A stretch of 64,000 nt of DNA. It comes from Fusibacter sp. 3D3 (lineage in GTDB: Bacteria; Bacillota; Clostridia; Peptostreptococcales; Acidaminobacteraceae). The notes under the pieces were generated by a model, which searched no databases, was not told where the DNA came from, and was given only the letters and a program-made list of their open reading frames with translations. The stretch spans positions 104,293 through 168,292 of the forward strand of contig NZ_BDHH01000005.1 in the NCBI RefSeq assembly GCF_001748365.1. The letters are read 5' to 3'. Position 1 is the first letter of the stretch. The number at the start of each line of letters is the position of its first letter. Both the position numbers and the translations under genes were made by a program. Below, one piece after another: positions 2,546 to 57,952 of this stretch.

Positions 2546-4153
2546 ATGCTGTTAGAATGTTTGATAAAACAAAATTCACCTGATGATTTGGTTCTTGAAG
2601 GTCATCGTATAAGATTACGCGCGTTAAAAAAAGAAGATATTAGTGCCCTGTATGAGATTCGGCATTCGAGGGAGATTTCTAAATATATCGATCGTAAGAT
2701 TGATGAAACCTATGAAGAGACAGAACAATTTATAGATAAGATCATAGCGGGATATGAAGATCATCAATGGTATTTTTGGGGTATCGAACTCAAAGAGACA
2801 AAAGCAATTATTGGGACTTTATGTCTATGGAATATTAACTATGATGCGAATAAAGGTGAGCTTGGTTATGAGATTATCGAATCTAATCAAAAGAACGGTT
2901 ATATGCATGAGGGCCTTAAACTTGTTTTGAACTTTGCATTTAAAGTATTGATGCTCTCCACCGTTGAAAGCATTATTCATGCTCAAAACAAAGCATCTAT
3001 TAAGAGTGTGGAGCGTTATAATTTCAGTCTGATGGGTGTCATCTCTGATAAGAAACAAGTCATATACAGTCTGAACCGACTTTTGTTTTTATCCGATTAC
3101 CCAAATAGAGCACATGAAATAGGTCTGAAAATAGGTTCGCTTAAGAGAGGCGCTCTCAATAAAATCACAGATGTAGCGGGTATTCGTGTGGGACATTCTA
3201 CGATTCAAAGTGGTGCCTCTCAAACGGGTGTAACCGTTATTTTGCCGTCGGCAGAGGATATGTTTAAACATAAAATGATAGCTGCATCACATGTGATTAA
3301 TGGCTTTGGAAAGACAACTGGCTTAATACAAGTGGATGAGCTGGGAACCTTAGAAACACCTATAGCATTGACCAATACACTAGCAGTGGGGCGTGTTCAA
3401 GATGCTTTGATAGATTATATGCTTGCATCGAGTGAATCTGAAATTAAATCGATAAATCCAATTGTGGGTGAATGCAACGACAGTTATCTCAATGATATTA
3501 CACATAAATCTGTTCAAGCTTACCATGTACTTGATGCTATCAAGAATGCTGAAATTGACTTTTCAGAGGGCGCTATAGGTGCAGGCAGAGGGATGTCTTG
3601 TCATCAATTGAAAGGCGGCATTGGCTCATCATCAAGATGCTTCAGCATTGGCAAGGCGCAGTATACACTTGGCGTCTTGGTATTATCGAATCATGGCATA
3701 TTAACAGATTTAATCGTAGACCATAATCAAATTGGAAGTTGCATCGACTCTTTGAGACGAGCGGCTATTAATGAAGAGGCTGTGGATAAAGGATCGTGTA
3801 TGATTATTGTTGCCACAGATTTACCGGTATCTGACAGGCAACTTAAACGTATTTGTAAACGTGCGGTTAGTGGACTTGCAAGACTGGGTTCTTATATCGG
3901 ACATGGCAGTGGTGAGATCGTCATTGGTTTTTCCACCGCAAATAGAATTGGGATAACAACAGCTTCAGAGCTCATGTCATACACCTTTATTCAGGAAAAT
4001 CAAATGGATATTGCTTTTAGAGCTGTCATTGAGTCTACGGAAGAAGCCGTATTAAATTCAATGTTGACAGCAGAATCTGTTGAAGGCGTAAATGGAAATA
4101 AGAGAGAGAGTTTTCAAACATATGCTTCTCTGTTGAGCCAATCCGCAGTCTGA
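2546..4153 (+). CDS. GNAT acetyltransferase / S58 (DmpA-type) aminopeptidase fusion
   Basis: A 535-residue protein with two domains in one uninterrupted frame. Residues about 15-175 look like a RimJ/RimL-type GNAT N-acetyltransferase, with GELGYEI and an acetyl-CoA loop around QKNGYMHEG. Residues about 195-525 are a complete peptidase family S58 domain (L-aminopeptidase D-esterase / beta-peptidyl aminopeptidase): KRGALNKITDV, GMSCHQLKGGIGSSSR, and the self-cleavage site with Gly416-Ser417 before MIIVATDLP. In S58 enzymes this Ser becomes the N-terminal nucleophile of the beta subunit, so maturation would leave the GNAT domain on the alpha chain. S58 proteins are usually about 320-380 residues and stand alone. 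The start has a GGAGG 7 bases upstream. Confidence 0.85.
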   Translation: MLLECLIKQNSPDDLVLEGHRIRLRALKKEDISALYEIRHSREISKYIDRKIDETYEETEQFIDKIIAGYEDHQWYFWGIELKETKAIIGTLCLWNINYDANKGELGYEIIESNQKNGYMHEGLKLVLNFAFKVLMLSTVESIIHAQNKASIKSVERYNFSLMGVISDKKQVIYSLNRLLFLSDYPNRAHEIGLKIGSLKRGALNKITDVAGIRVGHSTIQSGASQTGVTVILPSAEDMFKHKMIAASHVINGFGKTTGLIQVDELGTLETPIALTNTLAVGRVQDALIDYMLASSESEIKSINPIVGECNDSYLNDITHKSVQAYHVLDAIKNAEIDFSEGAIGAGRGMSCHQLKGGIGSSSRCFSIGKAQYTLGVLVLSNHGILTDLIVDHNQIGSCIDSLRRAAINEEAVDKGSCMIIVATDLPVSDRQLKRICKRAVSGLARLGSYIGHGSGEIVIGFSTANRIGITTASELMSYTFIQENQMDIAFRAVIESTEEAVLNSMLTAESVEGVNGNKRESFQTYASLLSQSAV

Positions 4154-4282
4154 GATTTGCTTGAAATGAAATATAATTTTGCCTAGAGAAATTCTTTTAA
4201 AAAAATAAAAAATGGTTGACATAATCGCAAATGGGTATTCATTGACTAAAGCTTTAATTTTTTTTGAAAGTGTGGTGATGTT

Positions 4283-4996
4283 ATGAAAATAGATTCGAAT
4301 TCGTTTAATCCAATGATTCAGGGCGCTCAAAATAAACCTGCAAACATTAGTATTGAACAGAAGATGACTTCTCAAATTAACGCATTAAATCAAGGATCTG
4401 AAAATGCTCAAACTGTGGTAGATGCTCTGAAAACAGCCGATGGTGCACTTCAATCTGTATCGGATCCGCTACAGGAAATCAAGCAGCTTGCAATTCAAGC
4501 CCAAAACGGGATATTGACAGTGGATGACAAGAATGCCATCCAATCTCAAATCGAAGGCCTAAAAAGTTCAATAAAGGATACCCTTAAGAACACGGAATTT
4601 AATACTATAAAATTATTGGGTCAAGATCGTAAACTTAATGTTCAAACAGGCAATCAAGGAACGTCTATGCAGCTTCAAAATACCAGTTTAGAAAGTTTGG
4701 GCATCTCAGATTTTAATGTAACTGGAGATTTTGATCTCAGTAAGATCGATCAAGCACTGGAAAAAGTGAGCGCTGCACGTTCTAAAATGGGCAGCAAAAC
4801 GACAGGATTAGAATCAACGGTTCGCTCTAATGATATAGCACAAGAGAATACAGTTGCTTCCAGAGCAAATCTTGAAGAGGATTTGCTGACTCAAATATCT
4901 GATTTTAAAAAGCAGGATTATTTAAAACAGTATCAGTTATCTACTCAAAAATTGCAAATGGAATCACAAAAGAGTAAACTCAACATTTTAGCTTAA
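4283..4996 (+). CDS. Short flagellin-like protein
   Basis: A 237-residue protein related to flagellin. The first helical domain is seen from QKMTSQINAL through NAQTVVDALKTADGAL and LQEIKQLAIQAQNG to TEFNTIKLL. The C-terminal domain carries ARSKMGS, LESTVRSND and ENTVASRA and ends in the usual coiled tail. The canonical first 40-50 residues of flagellin (MRINxN through LSSG) are missing or replaced by a short unrelated start. No variable D2/D3 region is present. No other flagellar gene lies in the window and no sigma-D-like promoter was recognised upstream. It could be a minor filament protein or a flagellin paralogue on its way out. Confidence 0.75.
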   Translation: MKIDSNSFNPMIQGAQNKPANISIEQKMTSQINALNQGSENAQTVVDALKTADGALQSVSDPLQEIKQLAIQAQNGILTVDDKNAIQSQIEGLKSSIKDTLKNTEFNTIKLLGQDRKLNVQTGNQGTSMQLQNTSLESLGISDFNVTGDFDLSKIDQALEKVSAARSKMGSKTTGLESTVRSNDIAQENTVASRANLEEDLLTQISDFKKQDYLKQYQLSTQKLQMESQKSKLNILA

Positions 4997-12200: not shown

Positions 12201-12333
12201 CAATGCGTATATTCAGTTCGCTTCGCAACCTTCGCACCCCTCGCAACCCGCCTATTGGATTGCATTCCGTGAGAGTTTCTGAACTCGGAAGATGTCCCCC
12301 ACTTTGAGAAGTGAGGGACATCTCTTCAAGGGC
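12201..12333 (+). repeat. Family A repeat, copy 1 (IS605 right-end-like)
   Basis: A diverged copy of the about 130-bp family A element in the forward orientation. It ends in a 14-bp hairpin (GATGTCCCCCACTT...AAGTGAGGGACATC, 12291-12323). It shares with the other copies the GTATA..CAGT start, the TTGGATTGCATTC centre and the GAGTTTCTGAA segment. It fills most of the 340-base gap between the regulator and transporter genes; the rest (12334-12466) shows no gene. Confidence 0.75.
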
Positions 12334-12466
12334 TATGTTACAAAATAGAAATAAATTTTGTATGTTTGTGTAACATTTTGTAGGAAAGTGTAGTCTCGCA
12401 GATATAAATAGAGTGTATTCTGGAGTGAACTGTATTTATTTTGAATTATTAAAAAGGGGGAAAAAC

Positions 12467-20390: not shown

Positions 20391-20397
20391 ATATAAT

Positions 20398-20530
20398 CCT
20401 TGGGAAGATGTCCCCCGCTTTTCAAAGTGGGGGTTCATATTCCTAATTCAGAAACTCCCACTGAATGCAATCCGATAGGATTGTGCAAGTGTTACGAAGG
20501 TAGCGAAGCGGACTGAGTATACGCTTTGAT
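20398..20530 (-). repeat. Family A repeat, copy 2 (IS605 right-end-like)
   Basis: A full family A element in the reverse orientation. Read on the minus strand it runs GCGTATACTCAGTCCGCT..., hairpin CAATCC/GGATTG, GTTTCTGAATTAGGAA, then the terminal CCCCCACTTTGAAAAGCGGG hairpin. Copy 3 lies one base away in the same orientation, so the two form a direct tandem pair. Confidence 0.8.
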
Positions 20531-20531
20531 T

Positions 20532-20654
20532 CCTTGGGAAGATGTCCCCCGCTTTTCAAAGTGGGGGTTCATCTTCCTAATTCAGAAACGCCCACTGAAT
20601 GCAATCCGATAGGATTGTGCAAGTGTTACGAAGGTAGCGTAGTGGACTGAGTAT
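20532..20654 (-). repeat. Family A repeat, copy 3 (tandem partner of copy 2)
   Basis: Nearly identical to copy 2 over about 120 bases and in direct repeat with it. It diverges after the GACTGAGTAT end. A further fragment of the same end (GTTACGAAGGTAGC...CGCTTTGAT) occurs at 20690-20730. Confidence 0.8.
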
Positions 20655-20689
20655 GTACCAGAAAATCTTGAAATAAAATGTGGATTTTG

Positions 20690-20730
20690 GTTACGAAGGT
20701 AGCACAGTGAGCTGAGTATACGCTTTGATT
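20690..20730 (-). repeat. Family A fragment
   Basis: About 40 bases matching only the outer end of the family A element (GTTACGAAGGTAGC and GAGTATACGCTTTGAT), without the hairpin end. Confidence 0.65.
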
Positions 20731-20780
20731 TAGTCTTCAATGAGCTTTGGCTTAAAATATGGTATACTCATATAAAAGAG

Positions 20781-20832: not shown

Positions 20833-20859
20833 TAAAATTAGAGATGAGTGAGGTGCAAG

Positions 20860-21666
20860 ATGAAACTAAAAGTATTGGTAGATAATAATACGTATATTGA
20901 TGCCTACTACTGCGGAGAACCGGCAGTATCTTATTATATTGAGGATGAAGGGATAAAATTACTATTGGATGTTGGCTATTCCGATTTATTTTTAAAGAAT
21001 GCAGAGGCATTTGGCATCGATTTAAATGAGATTGAGTCCATTGTCATTTCGCATGGACATGATGATCATACCAGAGGTTTAAAGTTCTTTTTTGAATGCG
21101 AAAAAAGGGAAGCAGTGACCGTTATTGCGCATCCAGATGCTTTCAATGAAAAATCTTTTGAAGGCTTGAAGATCTGCTCGCCAATACTCAAGCAAGAACT
21201 CAGTGAGAAATGTAATCTTATCCTGTCACAGAAGCCCATTAAAGTGAGTCCAAACATCACTTTTTTAGGTGAAATTCCACAGACGAATCATTTTGAAAAG
21301 AGTCAATGCATTGGGACACAAATAGTGGATGGCAATTCATTCGATGACTATGTGCTCGATGATACAGCACTTGTTTATAAAAGTGCCCAAGGTATATTCA
21401 TTATCACAGGGTGTTCCCATAGCGGCATTTGTAATATTATAGAATATGCCAAAAATGTAACCGAAGACAATAGAGTGCTCGGTGTGATAGGTGGGTTTCA
21501 CTTATTTGAGGTGAATGAACAAGTACAAGGCACCATCCGTTATTTGAAGCGCAATAATATTGAGCATTTATACCCTTGTCACTGTACGTCGTTTGCTGTA
21601 AAATCAGAAATTCATAAGTTCATCCCTGTGCGAGAAGTGGGAGTGGGGTTAGAGCTAAATTGGTAA
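20860..21666 (+). CDS. MBL-fold metallohydrolase (COG1237-like)
   Basis: A 268-residue cytosolic metallo-beta-lactamase-fold protein. The metal motif is SHGHDDHTRG; further ligands lie in GCSHSGICNI and in the C-terminal YPCHCTSF. The arrangement, with the GCSHxG segment and a late His-Cys-His, resembles the COG1237 group named after dihydropterin ribofuranosyl-aminobenzene phosphate synthase. That activity is established for archaeal methanopterin synthesis and should not be assumed here. The ATG at 20860 is chosen over GTG 20848 because GTGAGGTG sits just ahead of it. The gene is flanked by repeat elements on both sides. Confidence 0.75.
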   Translation: MKLKVLVDNNTYIDAYYCGEPAVSYYIEDEGIKLLLDVGYSDLFLKNAEAFGIDLNEIESIVISHGHDDHTRGLKFFFECEKREAVTVIAHPDAFNEKSFEGLKICSPILKQELSEKCNLILSQKPIKVSPNITFLGEIPQTNHFEKSQCIGTQIVDGNSFDDYVLDDTALVYKSAQGIFIITGCSHSGICNIIEYAKNVTEDNRVLGVIGGFHLFEVNEQVQGTIRYLKRNNIEHLYPCHCTSFAVKSEIHKFIPVREVGVGLELNW

Positions 21667-21672
21667 AGCGCA

Positions 21673-21806
21673 ATCAAAGCGTATACTCAGTCCGCTACGC
21701 TACCTTCGTAACCCTTACGCAATCCGTTAGGATTGCATTCAGTGGGAGTTTCTGAATTAGGAATATGAACCCCCACTTTGAGAAGTGGAGGACATCTCCC
21801 CAAGGG
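21673..21806 (+). repeat. Family A repeat, copy 4 (IS605 right-end-like)
   Basis: A full-length forward-oriented copy beginning 6 bases after the MBL gene stop. It has GCGTATACTCAGTCCGCT, the hairpin CAATCC-GTTA-GGATTG, GAGTTTCTGAATTAGGAA and the terminal CCCCCACTTTGAGAAGTGG hairpin. The hairpin loop and flanks (CCGTTAGG) are shared with the genuine IS right end at 594-609. Confidence 0.8.
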
Positions 21807-21816
21807 TTATACTATT

Positions 21817-21887
21817 GCCCCTGTCTCAATGATTCCGGTCAGCGCCCTTGCATTGCTGCGGATAACCTGCATCATTGAGATGGGGGC
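21817..21887 (+). repeat. Family C hairpin element, copy 1
   Basis: A long hairpin. The arms GCCCCTGTCTCAATGAT and ATCATTGAGATGGGGGC pair over about 15 bp and enclose a core GGTCAGCGCCCTTGCATTGC followed by TGCGGATAACC. The core recurs, inverted, in copy 2 at 22004-22078, with quite different arms. No gene or T-run is associated. Confidence 0.75.
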
Positions 21888-22003
21888 TGTTGTGTGAGAA
21901 AGAATTTATGATCAATAATCTACATAGAACGGTGCTTTTAATATCACATGCCAATATGTCAATAAAATATTTTATTGTAAGATCTTGGTCCTAAAAACCA
22001 CAA

Positions 22004-22078
22004 AAGCCCCAATCCCCATGCGACAGGTCATCCGCAGCGTAGCGAGGACGCTGGCCTATAGCATGGGGATTGGGGCTT
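22004..22078 (-). repeat. Family C hairpin element, copy 2
   Basis: The inverse-oriented partner of copy 1. Its arms AAGCCCCAATCCCCATGC and GCATGGGGATTGGGGCTT form a perfect 18-bp stem. On the minus strand the core reads GGCCAGCGTCCTCGCTACGC then TGCGGATGACC, matching copy 1 at most positions. It lies between copy 1 and the miaB promoter. The rest of the 494-base gap (21888-22003) shows no gene. Confidence 0.75.
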
Positions 22079-22102
22079 AATTGTAAACAAAAATCCACAA
22101 AG

Positions 22103-22131
22103 TTTAATTGAGAATTGAAATCTGTTATAAT
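22103..22131 (+). promoter_or_regulatory. Extended -10 promoter of miaB
   Basis: TTTAAT (22103-22108), a 17-base spacer, and TATAAT (22126-22131) with TG one base upstream of the -10. It lies 30 bases before the miaB ATG. Confidence 0.6.
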
Positions 22132-22160
22132 AATAGGGAACGATTTTTAGGAGGATTGAA

Positions 22161-23606
22161 ATGTCAAAAAGGGAAACACTTAATTTGGTTTCTGTAGAGG
22201 AACTGTTAAATAAAAATGATGAAGTGATTCGTAATATTAGAGAGATCAACGATCAATTTCATAGAGAAGAAGGTAAGCAGAAGAAGGCTATTATAGTCAC
22301 CTACGGTTGTCAGATGAATGAGCATGACTCTGAAAAACTAGATGCCATGATTCAAGATATGGGCTATAGCGTCGTCAAGAAGATCGATCAAGCGGATTTG
22401 GTCATTTTCAATACGTGCTGTGTCCGTGAAAATGCAGAGTTTAAAGTTTATGGCAACTTAGGACGCATCAAACATTTAAAAGAAACGAAAAAGGACTTAG
22501 TCCTAGCGGTTTGTGGCTGTATGATGCAGCAACCGCATGTGGTTGAAGCTATCAAGAAACAATATAAATACGTGGATCTCGTATTTGGAACGCATAATCT
22601 TCATAACTTCCCATCGCTCCTTGAAGAAACGCTTTCCTCTCATAAACAAGTGGTTGAAGTGTGGGCAAATGAAGGGGATGTGATAGAGGGGCTTGCCATA
22701 AATCGCAAAAAAGACATCAAAGCTTATGTCAATATCATGTATGGATGTGACAATTTTTGTGCGTATTGCATCGTACCCTATACAAGAGGTCGAGAGCGTT
22801 CTAGAGTGCCAGAAGATATTCTTGATGAAATAAAAGGGCTTGTTGATGGTGGCGTGAAAGAGGTTATCTTACTGGGCCAAAACGTAAACTCCTATGGCAA
22901 AACGCTTGAAAGTCCAATGGATTTTGCAGACTTAATGAGAAAAGTAAACGATATCGAAGGGATTGAGCGCATTCGCTTTATGACCTCACATCCTAAAGAT
23001 ATCTCCGATAAATTGCTAGAAACCATGGCTGAATGCGAGCATATTTGCGAGTATTTACATTTGCCAATTCAAGCAGGCAGTAATCGGATCTTAAAAGCGA
23101 TGAATCGTAAGTATACGAGAGAACAGTATCTTGGAATTGTAGATAAAGCTCGAAAATTGATGCCAGAGGTGTCTATTTCCACTGATTTAATCATTGGTTT
23201 TCCTGGTGAGACAAAAGAAGACTTCGAAGAGACGTTATCTTTAATGAAAGAAGTCAAATTCGATTCAGCGTTCACCTATATTTACTCTAAGCGTACGGGG
23301 ACACCAGCAGCGTTGATAGAACCTCAGATCGATGAAGCCGAAAAACACCGCCGAATGACGGAACTGCTAGAAATGTTTAACCCGATGGTTAATGAAAAAA
23401 TTAAAAGTTACCAAGATGAAATCCTAGAAGTTCTTGTGGAAGGCGCTTCTAAATCAACAGATCAGATTTTAATGGGTAGAACGCGTCAACATGTTACGGT
23501 TAACTTTGAGGGCGATCTTTCACTCACGGGTAAGCTTGTGAGAGTCAAAGCGACTCAGCCAAGGCGATTTTCAATATTTGGCGAACTCGTTGAAGTGATC
23601 AGATAA
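22161..23606 (+). CDS. miaB: tRNA-2-methylthio-N6-dimethylallyladenosine synthase MiaB
   Basis: A 481-residue radical-SAM methylthiotransferase, slightly longer than average because of an N-terminal extension of about 45 residues. The UPF0004 domain supplies the auxiliary [4Fe-4S] cysteines (TYGCQMNEHDSEK, FNTCCVREN, AVCGCMMQ). The radical SAM cluster is MYGCDNFCAYCIVPYTRGRE, and a TRAM domain ends the protein (VLVEGASK to VRVKATQPRR). It adds the methylthio group to i6A37 made by MiaA, whose gene is part of the same block. GGAGG precedes the ATG. Confidence 0.95.
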   Translation: MSKRETLNLVSVEELLNKNDEVIRNIREINDQFHREEGKQKKAIIVTYGCQMNEHDSEKLDAMIQDMGYSVVKKIDQADLVIFNTCCVRENAEFKVYGNLGRIKHLKETKKDLVLAVCGCMMQQPHVVEAIKKQYKYVDLVFGTHNLHNFPSLLEETLSSHKQVVEVWANEGDVIEGLAINRKKDIKAYVNIMYGCDNFCAYCIVPYTRGRERSRVPEDILDEIKGLVDGGVKEVILLGQNVNSYGKTLESPMDFADLMRKVNDIEGIERIRFMTSHPKDISDKLLETMAECEHICEYLHLPIQAGSNRILKAMNRKYTREQYLGIVDKARKLMPEVSISTDLIIGFPGETKEDFEETLSLMKEVKFDSAFTYIYSKRTGTPAALIEPQIDEAEKHRRMTELLEMFNPMVNEKIKSYQDEILEVLVEGASKSTDQILMGRTRQHVTVNFEGDLSLTGKLVRVKATQPRRFSIFGELVEVIR

Positions 23607-31882: not shown

Positions 31883-31885
31883 TTG

Positions 31886-31992
31886 AATATCTCAAAACTG
31901 GCGGAGTCAGTGGAAAACCACGAGGGATTGAGAGTATTATAATGATTAGCCGACCGCCTGGGCGCTTACAGCCTAGGTGTGTCGGTTTTTGT
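31886..31992 (+). ncRNA. ZTP/ZMP (pfl motif) riboswitch with overlapping terminator
   Basis: The conserved blocks of the pfl motif are in order. An outer stem CTCAA/TTGAG encloses ACTGGCGGAGTC, and a GTGG-AAAA-CCAC hairpin is followed by GAGGGA. After a short linker comes the diagnostic CCGCCTGGGC. The last block lies inside a strong terminator: CCGAC...GTCGG (31950-31985) followed by TTTTT. ZTP binding in this class stabilises the folded aptamer and disfavours the terminator, so downstream expression should rise when 10-formyl-tetrahydrofolate is scarce. The next gene, pflB, supplies formate, a one-carbon source. Confidence 0.88.
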
Positions 31993-57257: not shown

Positions 57258-57752
57258 TTGATAAAAGTTGATGTGGAAAATTTAAAGAAATATGTGGATG
57301 CGTACTCATTTGTTGAATTGTCATCGGGTCAAATGATCATTAATATCCTCAAAACAGAGGGGATCATGAGAGTCGTTTATACCAAGTTATTTGAGGCGTA
57401 CAATATTTCAGAACCTAAGTTTTTTGTTCTATTACTTTTGAGTAATAAAAAGGAGGGCATGGCGCTTTCTGAAATTGGAGAACAAATGCTTGTTACTAAA
57501 GCGAACATGACGACTTTGATTGAGCGCATGGAGAATGAAGGTTTGGTTTCAAAGAAAAGAAGTCATGAAGATAAGCGTTCTATTAAAGCGACATTAACAC
57601 CTAAGGGGGAATCTCTTTTCGATGAAGTTAAATTTTTACATAAAGAATTTAGTGAAAAAATGATGAAATCACTGACAAATGATGAAATCGATTCTTTAAA
57701 TCATTTATTGAGAAAGCTTCAATTTGGGATTATGAATGATTTTAACCCTTGA
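57258..57752 (+). CDS. MarR family transcriptional regulator
   Basis: A 164-residue DNA-binding protein. The winged helix is at residues about 45-125: LSEIGEQMLVTKANMTTLIERMENEGLV, then the wing RSHEDKRSIKATLTPKG. Long terminal helices form the dimer. The start is TTG at 57258, with GGAGG (57245-57249) at the right distance. No target gene is adjacent in an obvious operon. Family A and B repeats follow it. The ligand is unknown; MarR relatives often sense phenolics or oxidants. Confidence 0.88.
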   Translation: MIKVDVENLKKYVDAYSFVELSSGQMIINILKTEGIMRVVYTKLFEAYNISEPKFFVLLLLSNKKEGMALSEIGEQMLVTKANMTTLIERMENEGLVSKKRSHEDKRSIKATLTPKGESLFDEVKFLHKEFSEKMMKSLTNDEIDSLNHLLRKLQFGIMNDFNP

Positions 57753-57879
57753 GGAGATGTTTCCCACTTCTCTAAGTGGGGGTTCATATTCCTAATTCAG
57801 AAACGCCCACTGAATGCAATCTGATAGGATTGTGCAAGTGTTACGAAGGTAGCGCAGCGGACTGAGTATACGCTTTGAT
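57746..57879 (-). repeat. Family A repeat, copy 5 (IS605 right-end-like)
   Basis: A full reverse-oriented copy that begins within the last bases of the MarR gene. Its hairpin end is CCCACTTCTCTAAGTGGG; the internal hairpin has one mismatch (CAATCC/AGATTG). It is otherwise close to copies 2 and 3. Confidence 0.8.
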
Positions 57880-57952
57880 GTAATGCGCTAGAAGTTGAAG
57901 TATTTATAGATCAGACGAATTCGAAATTGCGGTTTTTGAATCTTTATGGTCG

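What the first reader, a model, noticed from the sequence alone, without database searches (positions are those of the whole stretch)
21817..22078. Family C: two inverted long hairpins sharing a core but not their arms
The element at 21817-21887 and the reverse-oriented one at 22004-22078 share the core GG.CAGCG.CCT.GC...GCTGCGGAT.ACC. Their arms of 15-18 bp are unrelated to each other but perfectly self-paired. The design mirrors family B with another core. Two such units facing each other over 115 bases recall BIME-like composites, yet the core does not look like known REP sequences to me. They lie directly upstream of the miaB-mutSL-miaA-hfq block.
Basis: partly seen in the sequence, partly recalled or inferred. 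Interest (0 to 1): 0.68.

Follow-up and report, generated by a model that had tools for sequence, protein, structure and literature searches.

The report
Terminator hairpins: fixed tip, free arms
The two hairpins belong to an apparently undescribed family of dozens of DNA palindromes in Fusibacter and a few relatives that sit just behind genes, probably end transcription, keep one conserved tip and carry long arms that differ at nearly every site yet stay matched, so they offer a natural test of how perfect palindromes arise and persist.

Summary
In detail: two inverted hairpins at 21817-21887 (+) and 22004-22078 (-) share a 31-nt core that no shuffle reproduces. The core is not unique. A covariance model finds 39 places in the host genome (Fusibacter sp. 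3D3; 24 dispersed, 15 in 222-bp arrays), about 36 in F. ferrireducens, a few in other genera. The shared part is the tip (AAGAGTCCTCGGC-loop-GCCTGCGGATT plus an internal loop). Outer arms (about 20 bp) are mostly unrelated between copies but about 96% Watson-Crick paired; orthologous stems show 24 compensated double changes. Copies lie between convergent or codirectional genes (none divergent), mostly sense, close behind a stop codon, with an A-tract before and a T-tract after: a bidirectional terminator layout, not a BIME. Arm mismatches show no G-U excess, so I infer pairing is kept at DNA level, most likely by template switching. Y1 transposases do not track the family; integron boxes and integrase are absent; Rfam has no match. 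Several copies bound DNA missing from the sister species (10-kb S-layer gene, 14-kb island, DISARM, CRISPR-Cas, MNT-HEPN), so a role as insertion site remains open. Termination and template switching are untested at the bench.

The parts
21817..21887 (+). Element E1: arms 21817-21839 / 21865-21887, core 21837-21867; lies about 145 nt behind the stop codon of the upstream gene on the same strand; diverged (decaying) core
   Evidence: R1 score 63 bits
22004..22078 (-). Element E2: arms 22004-22030 / 22052-22078, core 22026-22056 on the minus strand; intact; T-rich tail CTTTTGTGGTTTTT on the core strand
   Evidence: R1 score 79 bits
21888..22003 (.). Spacer between the two inverted elements
   Evidence: sequence
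20848..21666 (+). Upstream ORF, 272 aa, MBL-fold-like by eye; E1 sits in sense on its 3' side
   Evidence: assignment by eye
21673..21811 (.). Copy of a separate ~140-bp dispersed repeat (more than 35 copies in this genome) ending about 6 nt before E1; not part of family C
22081..22160 (+). Region before miaB conserved in two other Fusibacter genomes; the conserved stretch begins 2 nt behind E2
22161..23606 (+). miaB

Best explanation
The pair are two members of a dispersed family of 3'-end hairpins in Fusibacter and a few related Clostridia. Shown from sequence: a conserved tip (short helices, GAG-type bulge, internal loop) on a long stem of free sequence; position close behind stop codons, mostly sense; A-tract and T-tract outside the stem; never between divergent genes; compensated arm changes between orthologues; local duplication. 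Inferred: (1) the hairpins work as mostly bidirectional intrinsic terminators; at the miaB locus they would insulate the conserved miaB promoter region from upstream transcription; (2) the arms stay matched because one arm is recopied from the other by template switching during replication, so drift in one arm is fixed in both, which gives unrelated but matched arms without selection on their sequence. The tip is then the only part under sequence selection, for a ligand or protein still unknown.
For: Family: core patterns and covariance models. Pairing: 23 of 31 pairs (10 sequences) and 26 of 29 (70 sequences) change on both sides, 0 of 500 shuffles reach the covariation score (also 69). Own arms pair with median score 17 versus 3 for the left arm of one copy with the right arm of another. 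Position: 31 convergent, 33 codirectional, 0 divergent, 5 unassigned; sense stop within 40 nt 28 vs antisense 10. T 0.56-0.67 in the four positions after the last G-C pair, A 0.49-0.58 before, background 0.33. DNA level: isolated arm mismatches G-U 12, A-C 25, other 16 against 1198 Watson-Crick pairs; ordinary terminator-like hairpins of the same genomes G-U 14, A-C 9 (Fisher p 0.037). Orthologous stems: 24 compensated changes vs 3 G-U, 9 A-C, 11 other. Core of the thiT-side element inverted between species with the outer arm kept. Template switching as maker and keeper of perfect stems is published (PMC8794818). The groEL 3' end carries a member in Fusibacter and in genus g18 with different arms.
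Against: Termination was not measured; many copies, E1 among them, lack a clear T-tract, and the simple terminator scan flags neither element (its loop limit of 8 nt cannot fit them). The G-U result is modest: a first control (15 vs 3) counted overlapping registers twice, and the cleaned control gives p 0.037. A bidirectional RNA terminator would also disfavour both G-U and A-C, so DNA-level upkeep is not the only reading. A conserved 25-nt tip is not needed by a terminator and stays unexplained.
Confidence: 0.55

Rival explanations
1. Structured 3'-UTR RNA: the tip is an RNA motif that binds a protein or small molecule and controls read-through or mRNA decay; arms co-vary only because the RNA stem must form.
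For: Conserved internal loop, bulge and apical helix with covarying flanks; sense orientation behind stop codons; conserved position behind groEL across genera.
Against: No G-U excess in arms (12 vs 25 A-C; 3 vs 9 in orthologues); it follows unrelated housekeeping genes (groEL, ychF, metK, purD, pepD, DegV, S-layer), so no regulon; Rfam has no match.
Confidence: 0.22
2. Folded single-strand DNA sites for a recombinase: gene-plus-hairpin units are captured beside a resident hairpin, in the way integrons add gene plus attC.
For: DNA absent from the sister species is bounded by family hairpins: 10-kb S-layer gene between same-arm direct copies, 14-kb island between same-arm direct copies, CRISPR-bearing island of G000 between C14:108740 and C34:13899 against an intact hairpin-free site in G002, DISARM genes between inverted copies, MNT-HEPN pair. 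Strand-neutral pairing fits a DNA hairpin.
Against: Many copies sit at fully syntenic sites; 3' ends are safe landing places for any insert; no integron integrase above cut-off and no attC boxes; flanking pairs with equal arms are what RecA recombination between direct repeats would leave; the DISARM pair has the wrong polarity.
Confidence: 0.15
3. REP/BIME-like repeats mobilised by a Y1 (RAYT-type) transposase.
For: Palindromic, intergenic, dispersed, some inverted pairs; the host has 26 Y1 transposase matches.
Against: Arms rather than loop are variable, the reverse of REP; Y1 numbers do not follow the family across genomes.
Confidence: 0.05

Closest known systems
Intrinsic (Rho-independent) terminators, bidirectional
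   Same: G+C-rich stem, A-tract before and T-tract after, close behind stop codons, often between convergent genes
   Different: Stem 20-30 bp instead of about 8-10; a conserved 25-nt tip with internal loop shared by dozens of copies
REP / BIME repeats with RAYT transposases (own knowledge)
   Same: Short intergenic palindromes in tens of copies, sometimes in inverted pairs
   Different: REP arms are conserved and loops vary; here the tip is conserved and arms are free; no link to Y1 transposases
Integron attC sites (abstract of PMC2727003; rest own knowledge)
   Same: Structure kept while sequence drifts, unpaired landmarks in the stem, placed 3' of genes in the same orientation
   Different: attC keeps its boxes at the foot and varies at the tip; here the reverse; no integrase or boxes found
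Hairpins made and kept by template-switch mutation (PMC8794818)
   Same: Long perfect stems, multi-base compensated changes, loop inversions
   Different: Described for RNA genes; here a multi-copy family with a conserved tip offers dozens of parallel cases

Membership tests
Bidirectional intrinsic terminator | Stable G+C-rich stem followed by a T-tract (and preceded by an A-tract) | tested here: met
   As a family: T 0.56-0.67 and A 0.49-0.58 next to the stem vs 0.33 background; 30 of 55 with at least 5 T in 8. E2 has it, E1 does not.
Bidirectional intrinsic terminator | Located at 3' ends of genes | tested here: met
   0 of 64 classifiable copies between divergent genes; 28 of 57 within 40 nt of a sense stop. 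E2 itself stands before miaB with no minus-strand gene beside it.
Bidirectional intrinsic terminator | Causes transcript ends | not testable with these tools
   No transcript data available
REP/BIME | Conserved stem sequence with variable loop | tested here: not met
   Outer arms mean identity 33% vs 28% shuffled; tip conserved
REP/BIME | Association with RAYT/Y1 transposase | tested here: not met
   PF01797 counts do not follow the family
Integron attC | R and L boxes GTTRRRY / RYYYAAC at the foot | tested here: not met
   Both boxes in 0 of 69 copies
Integron attC | Integron integrase in the genome | tested here: not met
   TIGR02249 matches only below cut-off, lacking model positions about 180-236
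Any Rfam RNA family | Score at or above gathering threshold | tested here: not met
   only generic hairpin microRNA models far below threshold

The most novel reading that the evidence does not exclude
The hairpins are the sites of an undescribed DNA-capture system: a host factor recognises the conserved tip in folded single-stranded DNA and inserts gene-plus-hairpin units (toxin-antitoxin, DISARM, CRISPR-Cas, S-layer genes) beside resident hairpins, the arms being remade at each event so that every site ends with its own matched stem.
Probability: 0.1. Interest if true: 0.9.

Novelty: new variant of a known kind. Interest (0 to 1): 0.6.

Why it matters
Dozens of parallel copies in two sister species, with one fixed part and one free but always matched part, make the question of how perfect palindromes are created and kept directly testable from sequence and in culture. 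If the tip is a binding or recombination site, it points to an unknown factor; the recurring position at the edges of defence islands would then help explain where such islands land in these bacteria.

Tried and rejected
Rfam at gathering and permissive thresholds: nothing. Exact core in the genome collection: only F. ferrireducens. Viral contigs: none with the main core; the one hit to a variant lies in a G+C-rich contig inside predicted coding sequence and without the matched long stem, taken as chance. Idea that the core was inserted into ready-made terminator stems: at G002:C2:159369 the empty orthologous site of G000 holds neither arm, so the arms came with the element or the site lost everything. 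First G-U control rejected for double counting and replaced. Weak R1 matches in G012 and G049 are plain hairpins without the core and that in G016 shows nothing; the G019 match was missed by my centring and confirmed with R2. A test of enrichment of synteny breaks at the elements was not possible: too few gene boundaries in the fetched stretches. Paper searches found no description of such repeats, but only open-access text was searched. Not pursued: whether arm sequences occur elsewhere in the genome.

Full report
Organism. The window is G000:C5:104293-168292. The assembly of 57 contigs and 5,111,250 bases equals that published for Fusibacter sp. 3D3 (PMC5525254). G002 has a contig of 635,936 bases, the length of the F. 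ferrireducens Q10-2 contig that carries two copies, so I treat G002 as that species.

Observation. E1 (21817-21887, +) and E2 (22004-22078, -) are present as described. The joint core has no chance matches and BLAST relates the two copies at E 7e-7 in the whole genome.

The family. Relaxing the core showed further copies with quite different arms. A covariance model from ten of them found 39 distinct places in G000 (24 dispersed, 15 in 222-bp tandem units on C5, C11 and C22 next to 5S-like rRNA sequence, read by eye), about 36 in G002 and 3 in G001. A broader model over 297 genomes of the order found it in 13 genomes of 7 genera out of 135: all three Fusibacter, four genomes of genus g9 (3-12 each), two of g18, four of one other family. 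So the family is patchy and lineage-bound.

Anatomy. Aligned on the tip a copy reads: outer arm (free), internal loop (left about YTTCRG, right about CTNC), inner stem of 3-4 bp plus AA/TT, a GAG-type bulge, TCC, TCGGC-loop-GCCTGC, GGA, and the mirror. Subtypes differ next to the tip (CAAGAG..GGATTG; CACGCG..GGAGTG; GGTTCCCA..GTAACC; GGACCG..GGAGC). Outer arms have median length 20; 25 of 64 are perfect; 1198 of 1251 counted cells are Watson-Crick, counting isolated mismatches only. Left arms pair with their own right arms (median score 17) and not with those of other copies (median 3). Covariation exceeds every shuffle and every slid register. Alignment A3 was fitted to the model; A2 and A4 were not.

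Position. Of 69 copies, 31 lie between convergent genes, 33 between codirectional genes, none between divergent genes. In 28 of 57 distinct copies a same-strand stop codon lies within 40 nt, against 10 for the opposite strand. The genes in front are ordinary: groEL, ychF, metK, purD, pepD, DegV, S-layer proteins and others, named by eye. Outside the last G-C pair, T is enriched after the stem and A before it over about ten positions. This is the layout of bidirectional intrinsic terminators. The pair before miaB departs from the rule: E1 is sense but 145 nt behind its gene with another repeat between, and E2 has no minus-strand gene beside it. Upstream of miaB the other two Fusibacter genomes have unrelated genes, and conservation starts 2 nt behind E2, so I infer a rearrangement here.

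How arms change. Where orthologous copies can be aligned, stems show 24 compensated pairs against 23 that are paired in one species only, of which 3 are G-U and 9 A-C. Across the family isolated mismatches are G-U 12, A-C 25, other 16. If the stem were kept as RNA read from the core strand, G-U should exceed A-C. Ordinary terminator-like hairpins of the same genomes give 14 to 9 (p 0.037 for the difference). The evidence is modest but points to strand-neutral upkeep. At one locus (G000:C1:258458 vs G002:C45:155447) the arms differ completely and G002 keeps the right half of the G000-type copy about 60 nt further on. In the MNT-HEPN duplication the tip and a 43-nt downstream stretch are identical while outer arms share 11 of 20 positions (counted by eye). 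At the thiT locus the core is inverted between species while the outer left arm is shared. Matched multi-base change and loop inversion are what template switching predicts (PMC8794818). That this happens here is my inference.

Association with inserts. Compared with the sister species, several inserts are edged by these hairpins: the 3284-aa S-layer gene of G002, a 14-kb island behind thiT with identical-arm direct copies, a G000 island with a CRISPR-like array and Csm/RAMP-like genes (by eye) between C14:108740 and C34:13899, whose site in G002 has no hairpin, a DISARM system confirmed by PADLOC models, and a MNT-HEPN-like pair (by eye). Many other copies sit at undisturbed sites, 3' ends are tolerant of inserts, and direct repeats recombine, so this stays an open lead. 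One clear empty site (G000:C7 vs G002:C2:159369) lacks both arms, which speaks against insertion of a bare core into a ready-made stem.

Known families. REP/BIME and attC fail on tested features (membership table); Rfam has nothing. The family works like a bidirectional terminator and resembles attC only in keeping structure over sequence.

Verdict. A real, sizeable and apparently undescribed family; most likely terminators with a conserved tip whose arms are kept matched at DNA level. The tip's purpose is unknown.

Noticed in passing
window 21673-21811, also 20394-20732, 57743-57882, 12257-12336: A separate dispersed repeat of about 140 bp (TTACGAAGGTAGCG...ACTGAGTATACGCTTTG; CCCCCACTTTGAGAAGTGG at one end) with more than 35 copies in this genome and tandem partial copies in F. 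ferrireducens; its end recalls IS605-type ends.
   Followed up: no
   Followed up: no
window 31884-31970: ZMP/ZTP riboswitch, 57 bits.
   Followed up: no
G000:C5:456-1410, C11:5-517 and 4031-4321, C22:805-1761: 222-bp tandem units holding a family C hairpin beside 5S-like rRNA sequence, near contig ends.
   Followed up: partly
L050 5122-15062 (G002:C11): DISARM genes drmA, drmB, drmC and drmMII plus an 840-aa protein without PADLOC match as first gene; candidate accessory gene.
   Followed up: partly
G000 whole genome: 26 Y1 transposase matches in Fusibacter sp. 3D3 against 1-4 in the other two Fusibacter genomes.
   Followed up: no
G002:C42:108093-108235: Second copy of the miaB promoter and start region (82% identity) about 2 kb upstream of miaB in F. 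ferrireducens.
   Followed up: no
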